A program made the position numbers and the translations under genes. A stretch of 64,000 nucleotides of DNA from Thozetella sp. PMI_491 (taxonomy: Eukaryota; Ascomycota; Sordariomycetes; Chaetosphaeriales; Chaetosphaeriaceae), in contig MU270034.1 of assembly GCA_021432635.1 (NCBI GenBank), positions 186,001 to 250,000 on the forward strand, read 5' to 3'. Each line of letters opens with the position of its first letter. Within the stretch, counting starts at the first letter, position 1. Positions 60,223 to 64,000 of the stretch are shown piece by piece. The notes beneath the pieces are model-generated. The model did no database searches, had not been told where the DNA came from, and saw nothing but the letters and a program-made list of their open reading frames with translations.

Positions 60223-61544
60223 TCAGTTGTCGTTTCCACTCGACGAATGACCATCCTCTAGCCGAACAAGCTTGTCGGCTATATCCTTGGCAGAATCCCC
60301 AATGATCGTAATCTACCAATTCATTAGATGCTAAACTTTTGAAAACCGGTCAGACATACCTTTTGCGACCCAACGATTCTGTTTCCATCTGTTGCGGTGC
60401 TAGTAATAACCGCTGACACGACCCCGTGATTATTTGAGATTGCACCCAAGCTCGTTGGGCCAATGGTAATGCCGCCCTGAGAACATTTAGTGCATGTAAT
60501 GTTGGACAATAGGAACAGCCATGAATAGTCCAACCTGTTTCCCGCCATGATCTTCGGCCTTCTTGTCAAGGGCCTGGATCCACTGGCTTAGCTTGTTCGA
60601 GATGCTAATGAAGCCACTCCGATATTCATCCTCAAACTTGCACATGTCAGAATGGTCTTCCTGGATGGACAAAGGCACGATCCCAGGGAGAGTTGCGGAG
60701 GCCCTGTCCACGATGAAGCCGATACTGAATCCCGCGGCCTTAGTCGGGATTTCCTCGAAATAGCATGCCACCTCTATCCAGGGACCGATGCGGTCTCTCT
60801 CCTTGATGACTTGCAAAAAGTTGTTGTTGATGTCAATTAGCATCTTGGACCGCTTCTCGAGATCTCCTATCTTTTCTTCGTTTGTAGAAGAGAAGAGGGA
60901 TAGAAATTGGGTCCCTATGAGAGCCCATGATGCTTTCTCGGAACCAGCAAACGGAGTTCCGAGGAAGATCATGCCGCGAACTTTGCCTACTAGCGCTTTC
61001 TCGGCCGTCTCTGTACCGTGTTGTTTCGAAATGGCATTTGCACAGACTAAACCCCCCAAACTGTGGGCAACGAAGATGATGGGTCGGTCGTTCTGTAGAA
61101 AGATTTCGTAAGTATTTATACAAATTCGAAAATTGCAAGGGTATAATACTGTCTCTGTGCGGGTGCGAAGACCAATGAGACTGTCGAGCAAAGCCGTCGA
61201 GTGGTCATCGATAGTAGTCGTAGGAGGAACCTTGCCAGGGCCGAACAGGGGGTAGAAGTGAGCAGCTGATGCGTTGTAACCGAAGGAAAGAATCCGCGCA
61301 GTCGTGCACCTTATTGGCAAGAGATCCTTGGGCCAGAATACGGAGGGGTTTTTCCTCGTTGGCTCAGAAGTCCAAGTCTTGATCCTGTCACCATGGAGGC
61401 CATGAACAAACACAATGCTGAGCTTCCGTCAACTTGAAAGTCCGTCCAGCTCAAATTCCAAGGGGATACTAACTCGACCTTAGTATCACCCTGTGGTGGG
61501 TCATGTAAAGGCTCCCCTAGTCCATTCGAGTCCGTTTTTGCCAT
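60223..61544 (-). CDS. SesB-like alpha/beta hydrolase with C-terminal amyloid-like tail
   Basis: Five exons encode about 370 residues: 61544-61470, 61422-61150, 61092-60535, 60476-60360 and 60312-60223. Introns are 47, 57, 58 and 47 nt. Intron 2 (61093-61149) is a multiple of three with no stop, so it can be missed, but GTATTA...TTTCTACAG and the normal join to NDRPIIFVAHSLGG support it. The lipase domain has VFVHGLHGDRIKTW (oxyanion region), the nucleophile in FVAHSLGGLV, GMIFLGTPFAGS, and the late His in LSIQEDHSDMCKF. The C-terminal 68 residues form a separate tail rich in Gly, Asn, Ile and Val (GGITIGPTSLGAISNNHGVV, GNRIVGSQ, ITIIGDSA). SesB proteins are lipase effectors controlled by such prion-forming tails and a partner NLR. 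The tail resembles the N-terminus of the divergent gene at 63570. The gene is intact. Confidence 0.85.
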
Positions 61545-61707
61545 AATGCTATTACCTATATCAAGTTAATCAACACTCGTGCCAGGAAATAAGACATGTG
61601 GCAAATTCAAAGGCAAAGGGTTCCATGAGACAGGCTCCAACCGAGTAAATTGTACTTATGGGGCCGCCAAATGTTCTTTTCTCCCTTAAGGTGTTTTAGT
61701 CAACTCC

Positions 61708-61734
61708 TCAAGGTGCTCAAGGTGCTCAAGGTGC
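61708..61734 (+). repeat. Three tandem copies of TCAAGGTGC
   Basis: Three perfect head-to-tail 9-bp units, 164 bp upstream of the SesB-like start codon. This is a short minisatellite of no known role. Confidence 0.9.
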
Positions 61735-62056
61735 CGAAGGCGGTACGCTGCGTCATCCTATTGTCTGCCACGTCATCGGAGGCATTCATGGCGTCGCATT
61801 TGACGGGTCACTGTCGCAAAACCCTAAAGCACGTTCCAAGAGGGTCTGCACCAACCAAATTTACGCCTCAGTACCCAGAGTACATTGAGCAATGTACTCT
61901 AGCGCCCACTTAGGCGCAAGAGGGAACAACAGCATCAGCAACGGGCACCGCAGTGGACCAGCGCAGAATATCTTCTTCACGCATTAGAGCAAATGACCCG
62001 CTAAAAATGGCCCCTGACTTCTTGTTTTATTGTGTGATATCAACGCTTATGTAGTT

Positions 62057-62080
62057 ATCCTCATCCTCATCCTCATCCTC
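62057..62080 (+). repeat. (ATCCTC)4 microsatellite with TTC tail
   Basis: Four perfect ATCCTC units, followed directly by TTC repeats to about 62091. This is a pyrimidine-rich simple sequence in the spacer. Confidence 0.9.
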
Positions 62081-63569
62081 TTCTTCTTCTCTGCCTTCCT
62101 TGTCCGGCTTATTGAGCTGTTACGCAACGACTCAGCAGCGAAATGTAGCTACAAGTTGATCCACGTACAGTCCAGAGCCGAGCTGCCTCAGCGATCCGAC
62201 TACATAAAATCTGACAGAAGTACTGTAATGTGCGTTTCTTGCAATGCGGCAATTGGTTAGGGGGGCACATGTCACATTCTTGGCGTAAACGAGGGGACCC
62301 TATCAGATGCATTCATATCCGAATTTGAAGCACTTCCCAAATGTGCACTATTAGAGCACGGCTGCCAAACCAGTGTAAATTTGGCCATTGCTGCCCAACT
62401 CACAGCCCAATCCCGCCGAGACCGGTGGGAGATCACCAGTCCACACGGCTGAACGAAGGCCGACATACGTTTATACCCTCGTTGTGCCTCCCCGGTCGTC
62501 GATTGCGATCTGCTGAGCACACTGGTAGCTTTTAGGGAGAGTGCCCATTGTACTCTAACAGTCTGTGTGATGGTGAAAAATATATTTATCGTATTTGCCG
62601 CGAAGTGAGTCTTTCACAGCAAGCTGAAAAACCAACATCGAATATTTTGGCTCATTGATGCAACTTGCCGTATACCAGCTAAAGAATGTTATCAGAGAGC
62701 ACCGCTTTCACTACAGGGAATTCCAATAAAACGGGCATTAATGCACATTGGCCTGTAGCCTGCTTCGTAGGATAAGAGGGTGTCTTACGTGTTAGTCGGT
62801 GGTTGGCTGATCAAGAGAGGTTGAGGTGCAGCAAACGACTACAGAGCGCGTTACAACTGCTTAGTTGAGGCAGATTACTTTCTCCCCCGCACGGCAGACT
62901 CTACTCTCCGGGTCGTATGCATAGGTGGAGAATAAAAATGCGGCAGACATGCCGGCAAATCATCCCCGGTGTTGACCGTGCATGGTGCACAGGCACGCAT
63001 CTCCGCGGGTAGAACGGGTGCCCGCGACGATAATTGCCCTCGAATTTGTCGCACACGACAGTAGTTCCAGATTATGGTAGATCTCACTACTGCGATAGGC
63101 GTCTCAGAAAATGGTGGCTCATGGACTACCCGTATTGGACTAAGCGAATGCGTCTAAAGTAACTAGCATGGAAAACTGACCGGGAGTTTTGCAACAGTGT
63201 GCCCTATCGGCCTCCGTACTCAGGTGCTGTGGCTTATTAGTCAACTGACCTGCCTATTCGGATTCTATACACATCTTAGTAGCTCCGTCCAGGGAGCCAG
63301 CCAATAGATATCAAGCCACAGAGCTGTGGCCAATCTATGTCGCGGAATACGCGCTGAGATGCATGCATTGCTGACGGTGTGGCAGGGGTAAGTCTTCTAC
63401 TAGCCACGTATGCACGCTAAAGAGTAGAACTGGCTTGAAAGAGTACGTACAGATTATAGCGTGCCCCGTTAGTACTTGGTAGAGGAAAACACGTTTGCAC
63501 GTGTAGCACATCGTCATGTAAGGCAAAAAAAGCAGCTCTAAGATTCAGCGAAGCACTACATACTTCCCG

Positions 63570-64000
63570 ATGGCAGACGAGACACGCTCTCGACCACGTC
63601 CACCGAATTCCTACATCCTAGGCGGGATGAATTTTCAACAACTCACGACGAACCACGGTGTGCTGGCTGGTAATGTAGTTGGCGACAACAATACCATCAT
63701 TGGTTCGTGCAATTTTGGCGGGAAAATCTCCTGTAGTGAATACTAAACTGTATAGGACAGCAGCAAATCCAATTATCACTGGTGTTGGCTCCAGCGACGA
63801 GAGAGGCGAAAGGTCTGACATCCCCAGAACTTCGGAAAACCACAACTAAACTGACTGCATCGCAGAGAGAGACCGGAAGAGGCTGCTCAGGTTGCTTAAA
63901 ACCTCCAACCCAAGCCGCGAACACCAACGCATTCGCAAAATGACACATCAGGACACTTGCAAGTGGATTCAAGAAACCTCTCAATTCAAAAACTGGTTTC
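63570..64000 (+). CDS. N-terminus of a probable NLR with amyloid-like motif (runs off window)
   Basis: From the ATG at 63570 the frame reads a short leader, then GGMNFQQLTTNHGVLAGN followed by VVGDNNTIIGSCNFGG, and stops at 63742. This G/N-rich block looks like the prion-forming N-terminal motif of fungal NLRs. Further on, after a good intron acceptor (ACTAAAC branch, CGCAG at about 63865), another frame reads DRKRLLRLLKTSNPSREHQR, then a stretch ending WIQETSQFKNWF. This is the pattern that precedes the NACHT domain in many fungal NLRs (L-x-TxxPxxxxxRI ... WI). The exon structure between the two blocks is not resolved; at least one intron, perhaps two, is needed. NACHT/NB-ARC and sensor repeats would lie beyond 64000. 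The gene is divergent from the SesB-like gene, as expected for a receptor/effector pair. Confidence 0.6.

What the first reader, a model, noticed from the sequence alone, without database searches (positions are those of the whole stretch)
60223..64000. Candidate amyloid-signalling pair: intact SesB-like lipase and divergent NLR with related motifs
The lipase (minus strand) ends in a tail with the order GG ... NNHGVVSAV ... GNRIVGS. The divergent plus-strand gene begins with GG ... TNHGVLAGNVV ... NNTIIGS. The same short blocks occur in the same order at the C-terminus of an effector and the N-terminus of a probable receptor. In known fungal systems (HET-S/NWD2, SesA/SesB/NLR, HELLP/PNT1) the receptor amyloid templates the effector amyloid to trigger cell death. 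The motif does not look like the HET-s r-type repeats. It may be a sigma-type or a new motif; I cannot tell which without profiles.
Basis: partly seen in the sequence, partly recalled or inferred. Interest (0 to 1): 0.9.

Follow-up and report, generated by a model that had tools for sequence, protein, structure and literature searches.

The report
Fungal lipase and receptor sharing motif
In the fungus Thozetella, a lipase gene and the immune-receptor gene beside it carry a matching short tag at opposite ends of their proteins, which suggests that the receptor switches on the lipase by passing on an amyloid shape, with a tag that fits none of the published types it could be tested against.

Summary
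The lipase (60223-61544, minus) is an intact five-exon SesB-like alpha/beta-hydrolase, identical to an annotated Thozetella sp. PMI_491 protein. The divergent gene from 63570 continues past the window as a 1229-residue NLR: NACHT-type domain, winged helix, ankyrin repeats. Lipase residues 304-336 and NLR residues 17-46 are each other's best non-self match in the window's six-frame translation. The lipase tail is 75% identical in Fusarium decemcellulare, between non-conserved flanks. The closest NLR found (Geoglossum) carries a SesB-like lipase where this NLR carries the motif: the fused alternative to the two-gene design. The motif fails Pfam profiles and published patterns for HET-s-related, PP, sigma, PUASM and GDQN motifs; HET-s and PP controls from the same genome are recognised. 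Most likely: an NLR/lipase amyloid-signalling pair with a motif of an undescribed family. Weak points: no second NLR with the motif was found, the Fusarium tail does not match this NLR better than background, whole-genome searches with either motif return only itself, and nothing here shows amyloid formation.

The parts
60223..61544 (-). SesB-like lipase gene, five exons (61544-61474, 61417-61150, 61092-60535, 60476-60360, 60312-60223), 367 aa; hydrolase body about residues 20-290
   Evidence: Splicing; identical to annotated protein P0001; Pfam DUF676 31.8 bits and Abhydrolase_6 26.6 bits, both over cut-off; predicted structure matches alpha/beta-hydrolases. Ser124, Asp242, His260 as the triad: inferred from position; all three invariant in Fusarium
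60223..60476 (-). C-terminal tail, exons 4 and 5 (residues 300-367); exon 4 (60360-60476) encodes 300-338 with phase 0 at both ends
   Evidence: Coordinates; residues 299-353 41/55 identical to Fusarium against 2/8 in the linker and 2/14 at the very end; three predicted strands 303-315, 318-329, 332-343 and a helix 346-361, pLDDT block means 62-79
60366..60464 (-). Shared motif, effector side: lipase residues 304-336
   Evidence: Local alignment with NLR 17-46, score 47
61545..63569 (.). Region between the two divergent genes, about 2 kb
   Evidence: Coordinates; no promoter analysis made
63570..63735 (+). NLR exon 1 (residues 1-55 and the first base of codon 56)
   Evidence: donor GTGAAT at 63736; no transcript evidence
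63618..63707 (+). Shared motif, receptor side: NLR residues 17-46
63736..63865 (+). NLR intron 1 (preferred model; a two-intron alternative adds six residues)
   Evidence: acceptor CATCGCAG; homology with the Geoglossum NLR begins at residue 56
63866..64000 (+). NLR exon 2, cut by the window end; the gene goes on to C20:253589 (L009 4570-8589): NPHP3_N/NACHT 85-256, winged helix 374-446, ankyrin repeats
   Evidence: Walker A GKPGVGKT at 112, Walker B FVLDGLDE at 216

Best explanation
The two genes form a receptor/effector pair of the fungal NLR amyloid-signalling kind. When the ankyrin repeats of the NLR sense a ligand, the NACHT domain oligomerises and brings short N-termini together; these take up a beta-arch or beta-solenoid amyloid fold and template the matching C-terminal tail of the separate SesB-like lipase, which is clustered and so activated, probably damaging membranes or killing the cell. 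Shown here: both genes and their domains, the divergent arrangement, the shared motif, and conservation of the lipase tail in a second fungus. Inferred: ligand sensing, amyloid fold, templating, lipase activation, cell death. The motif fits none of the described families that could be tested, so it is probably an undescribed family.
For: NACHT-type domain, winged helix and ankyrin repeats downstream of the motif. Reciprocal best non-self match of the two ends, at a level (47) like that of the HET-S tail and r0 in the same window (40, 1 of 2000 shuffles). Lipase tail constrained between unconstrained flanks in Fusarium. Both cores Gly/Asn-rich (0.24 and 0.36 against 0.09 in 122 other proteins) and poor in charge (0.09 and 0.05 against 0.24). 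The closest NLR found has a SesB-like lipase (33% identical) ahead of the homologous region, which begins at this NLR's residue 56, the exon 1/2 junction; fused and two-gene forms are known alternatives (PMC3321046 section 10). The two shared turns, NHG and DxN, fall on the turns predicted at 316-317 and 330-331. Precedents with SesB-type lipases and an amyloid motif: sesB (sigma) and SBP (PP) (PMC5485727 section 7).
Against: No second species with the NLR side (0 of 14 candidates at E up to 0.001; no named F. decemcellulare protein among the 120 listed of 138 NACHT relatives). The Fusarium tail scores only 34 against this NLR, reached by 76 of 5000 shuffles and by 21 background segments. Whole-genome searches with either piece found only itself. 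AlphaFold2 gives the tail a moderate-confidence three-stranded sheet plus helix, which could also be an ordinary small domain (only two rows of the alignment cover the tail). No amyloid predictor or assay was run.
Confidence: 0.55

Rival explanations
1. It is an amyloid-signalling pair, but the motif is a far-diverged member of a described family (HET-s-related first, PP second), not a new one.
For: HELLF keeps the HET-s fold at about 17% identity (PMC7889193, passage). The lipase tail against the window's r0 is slightly above shuffles (29, 54 of 2000). NHGVLAG in the NLR loosely resembles NKGVQAG of the genome's PP protein.
Against: No Pfam hit up to E 10; HET-s spacing absent here but present three times in the window's HET-S and r0; no Q at the PP centre and no NxGxQxGxN; alignments to PP and the HET-S tail within shuffle range.
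Confidence: 0.18
2. Coincidence: a lipase with its own C-terminal module lies beside an unrelated NLR, and the similarity of two Gly/Asn/Val/Ile-rich ends is chance.
For: Chosen by eye; short low-complexity-like stretches; 1 of 3520 natural windows scores higher; the Fusarium tail does not match this NLR beyond background; whole-genome searches do not link the two. The genome is rich in both families (87 NACHT matches; 76 lipase matches), so neighbours of this kind are not rare by themselves.
Against: Reciprocal best match; Fusarium conservation of the tail as a separate module; closest NLR with a lipase fused in the same place.
Confidence: 0.15
3. The tail and the NLR end bind each other through an ordinary folded beta module (homotypic, non-amyloid adaptor), so that the NLR recruits the lipase without prion-like templating.
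For: Predicted three-strand sheet plus helix at moderate confidence; the conserved part runs on through 339-353 into the helix, which amyloid motifs would not need.
Against: The NLR motif is short (39 residues, no helix) and very Gly/Asn-rich; all described fungal pairs of this layout that I know of use amyloid (recalled; PMC9815663 section 6 describes them).
Confidence: 0.08
4. NLR exon 1 is a chance reading frame and the NLR really starts in exon 2, so there is no receptor-side motif.
For: No annotated protein with this N-terminus was returned; the donor is not ideal and several introns are possible.
Against: Acceptor with an upstream ACTGAC box (sequence; fungal branch-point consensus recalled); homology to the Geoglossum NLR begins at the predicted junction; a missed 5' intron also hid the motif of het-eN (PMC3321046, passage).
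Confidence: 0.04

Closest known systems
sesA/sesB/het-eN sigma locus of Nectria haematococca (PMC3321046 passages, PMC5485727 section 7)
   Same: SesB-type hydrolase with a C-terminal motif matched at the N-terminus of an adjacent NACHT-ankyrin NLR
   Different: Sigma repeats GxGxQF / GGTQN are absent here; no SesA-type second effector with the motif was found in the sequence scanned
HELLP/SBP/PNT1 PP-motif cluster of Chaetomium globosum (PMC5485727 section 7, PMC7885112 passages)
   Same: A putative lipase (SBP) shares a C-terminal motif with the NLR N-terminus
   Different: Q-centred pseudopalindrome absent here; the described P. anserina PNT1 has NB-ARC and TPR, not NACHT and ankyrin
GDQN pair of Fusarium oxysporum Fo5176 (PMC12261475 section 12)
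   Same: A motif family proposed from a single NLR/effector pair
   Different: Effector of SesA type; the pattern with GDQN is absent here
HET-S/NWD2 and HET-s-related motifs (PMC9815663 section 6, PMC4518210 passages)
   Same: Gene pair; C-terminal effector motif matched by an NLR N-terminal motif
   Different: HeLo effector, two 21-residue repeats with fixed spacing; spacing not met here
Geoglossum simile M1840_003966 (P0003), fused lipase-NLR
   Same: Closest relative found of the NACHT and winged-helix part (44% over 607 columns); SesB-like lipase in the effector position
   Different: Lipase fused to the NLR; no motif

Membership tests
Fungal NLR/effector amyloid-signalling pair | Adjacent genes: NLR without a fused effector domain, and a separate effector | tested here: met
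Fungal NLR/effector amyloid-signalling pair | Homologous motif at effector C-terminus and NLR N-terminus | tested here: met
   moderate strength, not significant in a whole-genome search
Fungal NLR/effector amyloid-signalling pair | The pair recurs in other species | tested here: inconclusive
   Effector tail in one other species; NLR side not found; neighbours of FDECE_11072 not available
Fungal NLR/effector amyloid-signalling pair | Amyloid formation and templating | not testable with these tools
   Needs bench work
SesB-like lipase | Alpha/beta-hydrolase related to the lipase domains fused to fungal NLRs | tested here: met
   33% identical to the P0003 lipase domain; 23 of 28 other fetched lipase loci of this genome (of 76 matches reported) have a P-loop pattern downstream on the same strand within 1.5 kb
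HET-s-related amyloid motif | 21-residue unit with Gly at 19 and hydrophobics at 5, 8, 10, 16, 18; PF11558/PF17108 | tested here: not met
   positive controls met. A distant member by fold is not excluded
PP motif | NxGxQxGxN core; PF17046 | tested here: not met
   the C105 control meets the core and PF17046, though not the strict published 17/18-residue pattern. A loose GxQxG occurs in the lipase at 297-301, outside the shared motif, and not in Fusarium or the NLR
Sigma motif | Three A/B units, GxGxQF and GGTQN; PF17106 | tested here: not met
   no sigma positive control over the cut-off in this genome
PUASM and GDQN motifs | FxGxGxQxxGxGxF; GDQN | tested here: not met
   patterns only, no positive control
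Unassigned NLR motifs 17, 19, 20, 34 of PMC9815663 | Their profile logos | not testable with these tools
   Logos are in figures, not in the text held; NLR34 (Ascomycota) cannot be excluded

The most novel reading that the evidence does not exclude
A further family of fungal amyloid signalling motif, with a strand-NHG-strand-DxN-strand plan and no Q-centred core, couples a NACHT-ankyrin NLR to a stand-alone SesB-like lipase, in an NLR lineage whose nearest relative carries the lipase fused at the same place: one lineage showing both the fused and the amyloid-coupled solution.
Probability: 0.4. Interest if true: 0.65.

Novelty: new variant of a known kind. Interest (0 to 1): 0.55.

Why it matters
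A 2025 paper lists HRAM, sigma, PP and two PUASM motifs as the fungal families and proposes GDQN from a single pair (PMC12261475, passages and section 12). A further family without a Q-centred core would widen the range of sequences able to carry this signal, and would give lipase effectors, less studied than HeLo pore-formers, a testable switch. The closest NLR with the lipase fused in place of the motif makes fused and amyloid-coupled designs comparable within one NACHT lineage. The genome also holds HET-s and PP motif sequences, so separation of pathways could be tested side by side.

Tried and rejected
Sigma, PP, HET-s-related, PUASM and GDQN identities were rejected by profiles and patterns, with positive controls for HET-s and PP only. 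The strict published PP pattern failed on the PP control too, so only its core was informative.

Sequence search of solved structures with the two pieces gave only weak hits (LpxA-type left-handed helix protein at E 0.29 for the NLR motif; three unrelated proteins at E 0.7-1.6 for the tail): not used.

Two other stand-alone lipases of this genome with Gly-rich ends (C70:139406-140085 and C134:46843-47616) were followed in case they formed similar pairs. Their tails match only themselves; I saw no NLR-like frame in the 4 kb fetched beside the first nor in the short flanks of the second. Left open.

A third partner with the same tail was looked for by local alignment in the window's six frames and in the other fetched loci; none reached the pair's score.

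NCBIfam gave nothing for either lipase. Folding the tail alone (alignment A4) could not be run.
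Full report
Where it is. The window is C20:186001-250000 of a 72.3-Mb assembly in 157 contigs. The lipase is GQ53DRAFT_806100 of Thozetella sp. PMI_491, identical over all 367 residues to my gene model.

The effector. The lipase runs from 61544 down to 60223 in five exons. Pfam recognises DUF676 and Abhydrolase_6 over their cut-offs. The AlphaFold2 model (mean pLDDT 78.3, 18 aligned sequences) matches alpha/beta-hydrolases of the PDB (best Foldseek E 5.7e-7, TM-score 0.40 by query length). 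Ser124 in HSLGG, Asp242 and His260, which I take for the catalytic triad, are invariant between Thozetella and Fusarium decemcellulare. After the hydrolase comes a low-confidence linker (block 291-300, pLDDT 53), then three predicted strands, 303-315, 318-329 and 332-343, and a helix, 346-361. Exon 4, phase 0 at both ends, encodes residues 300-338.

The receptor. I extended the contig. The gene starting at 63570 gives, with four introns, a 1229-residue protein: NPHP3_N at 85-256 (103.7 bits), NACHT 25.0 bits (just below its cut-off of 26.7), GPIID_WHD 34 bits, and ankyrin repeats; Walker A GKPGVGKT at 112, Walker B FVLDGLDE at 216, 17 ankyrin-type units of 57% mean pairwise identity. The search with residues 1-90 returned no protein (0 of 14 candidates at E up to 0.001), so the N-terminus rests on sequence alone.

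The shared motif. Lipase 304-336 aligns with NLR 17-46 with one 3-residue gap, score 47: NNHGVV with TNHGVL, DGNRIVGS with DNNTIIGS. Shuffles of the NLR end reach 47 in 2 of 5000 cases, shuffles of the motif alone in 3 of 5000, with cheaper gaps in 4 of 5000. In the window's six-frame translation (1643 segments, 90,765 aa) each is the best non-self match of the other (next best 42 and 38); in 364,368 aa from other fetched loci of this genome, some of them overlapping, nothing reaches 47 in either direction. The same method gives 40 (1 of 2000) for the HET-S tail and r0 elsewhere in the window. Against: 1 of 3520 windows from 120 other NLR proteins scores 48, though none of their first 81 residues exceeds 42; whole-genome searches with either piece at E up to 10 found only itself; and the pair was picked by eye first. 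The two shared turns, NHG and DxN, coincide with the turns predicted in the tail at 316-317 and 330-331; only two rows of the alignment cover the tail, so this is suggestive only.

Conservation. With the tail as query, 2 of 29 candidates from a library of 5.77 billion proteins score E up to 0.001: the protein itself and FDECE_11072 of F. decemcellulare. The search needs shared 5-residue words, so rarer or more distant relatives may be missed. The two proteins are 69% identical. By region: residues 1-290 200/290, linker 291-298 2/8, tail 299-353 41/55, end 354-367 2/14. So the tail is a constrained module between unconstrained stretches. Its most conserved part is GVVSAVI.STATDGNRIVGSQK.TIIGDSA; the NNHG block is not conserved. 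The Fusarium tail against the Thozetella NLR scores 34 (76 of 5000 shuffles; 193 of 5000 with the motif alone), which 21 background segments reach. A match confined to the Thozetella pair is what co-evolution within a cluster would give (reported for sigma loci, PMC3321046, passage), and also what chance would give. Among the 120 listed of 138 NACHT relatives no named entry is from F. decemcellulare (several entries have no name); the genes beside FDECE_11072 could not be fetched.

Fused alternative. The closest NLR found is Geoglossum simile M1840_003966: 50% identity over the region searched, 44% over 607 columns. With residues 1-660 of the Thozetella NLR free to align, homology begins at residue 56, at the exon 1/2 junction, and at residue 331 of the Geoglossum protein. 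Residues 22-276 of that protein are a SesB-like lipase 33% identical to the window's. The third hit, from Pleopsidium, also begins with such a lipase; the second, from Monosporascus, has a gene model that starts inside the NACHT region and says nothing. By a simple active-site pattern only 3 of the 120 listed relatives have such a start, so the link is not general. In this genome 23 of 28 other fetched SesB-lipase loci (of 76 matches reported) have a P-loop pattern within 1.5 kb downstream on the same strand, so the stand-alone lipase is the less common design among those looked at. Coexistence of all-in-one and two-gene designs is documented (PMC3321046 section 10).

Which motif. Pfam at E up to 10 gives no HET-s, HET-S, Ses_B or NACHT_sigma hit for either end. 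The same library gives the window's r0 25.7 bits on PF17108 (cut-off 24.3), and a C105 protein 24.2 bits on PF17046 (cut-off 23.2), a model that PMC12261475 calls a misnamed PP motif. Published patterns for the PP core, sigma, PUASM and GDQN are absent from the shared motif; positive controls existed for PP only, and the strict PP pattern failed on that control. The HET-s-related spacing taken from PMC4518210 passages is absent here but occurs twice in the window's HET-S tail and once in r0 (background 57 hits in 148,106 aa). Alignments to the genome's PP, HET-S and r0 sequences lie within shuffle range, the strongest being lipase tail against r0 (54 of 2000). Both cores are Gly/Asn-rich and poor in charge. 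A far-diverged HET-s-type fold cannot be excluded, since HELLF keeps that fold at about 17% identity (PMC7889193, passage), nor can a match to the unassigned NLR motifs of PMC9815663, whose logos are not in the text.

Mechanism. By analogy with HET-S/NWD2, HELLP/PNT1 and the sigma locus (PMC9815663 section 6; PMC7885112 passages; PMC5485727 section 7): ligand sensing by the ankyrin repeats, NACHT oligomerisation, amyloid folding of the NLR N-terminus, templating of the lipase tail, lipase clustering and activation. The genes, domains and shared motif are shown; every step of the working mechanism is inferred.

Literature seen. PMC9815663: outline, sections 6, 19, 24, passages. PMC5485727: outline, sections 7 and 14. 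PMC12261475: passages and section 12. PMC3321046: passages and section 10. PMC8086366, PMC12258605, PMC12881547, PMC4518210, PMC7889193, PMC7885112, PMC10197012: passages. Others: search listings only. Searches for a published account of this motif or locus; I saw none in their listings (the library holds open-licence papers only).

Verdict. A known kind of system in an apparently new version, moderately supported, not proven: 0.55 for an amyloid-signalling pair with an undescribed motif, 0.18 more if the motif is a diverged member of a known family; interest 0.55.

Noticed in passing
window 4276-5621: A HET-S/NWD2-type locus in the same window: HeLo frames on the plus strand (about 4701-5621; 62.3 and 49.4 bits) with a HET-s_218-289 tail at 5355-5531 (32.7 bits, over cut-off, in the genome search; 30.3 bits, below it, as a typed protein), and a divergent minus-strand r0 N-terminus at about 4378-4446 (PF17108 over cut-off). 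No NACHT match lies close to r0, and a zinc-knuckle-like frame follows it (4000-4191), so the NLR may be incomplete.
   Followed up: partly
window 19052-20695: SesB-like lipase exon followed by a NACHT match with two TAG codons in its frame, plus strand: a fused lipase-NLR, interrupted by stops or unrecognised introns.
   Followed up: no
   Followed up: partly
C70:139406-140085 (L033, L074, L076) and C134:46843-47616 (L034, L075): Two other stand-alone SesB-like lipases with Gly-rich C-terminal ends that could be further motifs; no match to them elsewhere in the genome at E up to 10.
   Followed up: partly
L009 6949-8490 (C20:251949-253490): Ankyrin array of 99-bp units with a 393-bp higher-order period, single units up to 85% identical as protein: looks like the fast-evolving repeats of fungal NLRs.
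   Followed up: partly
own genome G000: A very large NLR repertoire: 87 NACHT matches and 118 matches to this NLR's NACHT region, lower bounds that count exons, not genes; apart from its own three exons the best match there is only 32% identical, so the nearest relatives found are in other fungi.
   Followed up: no
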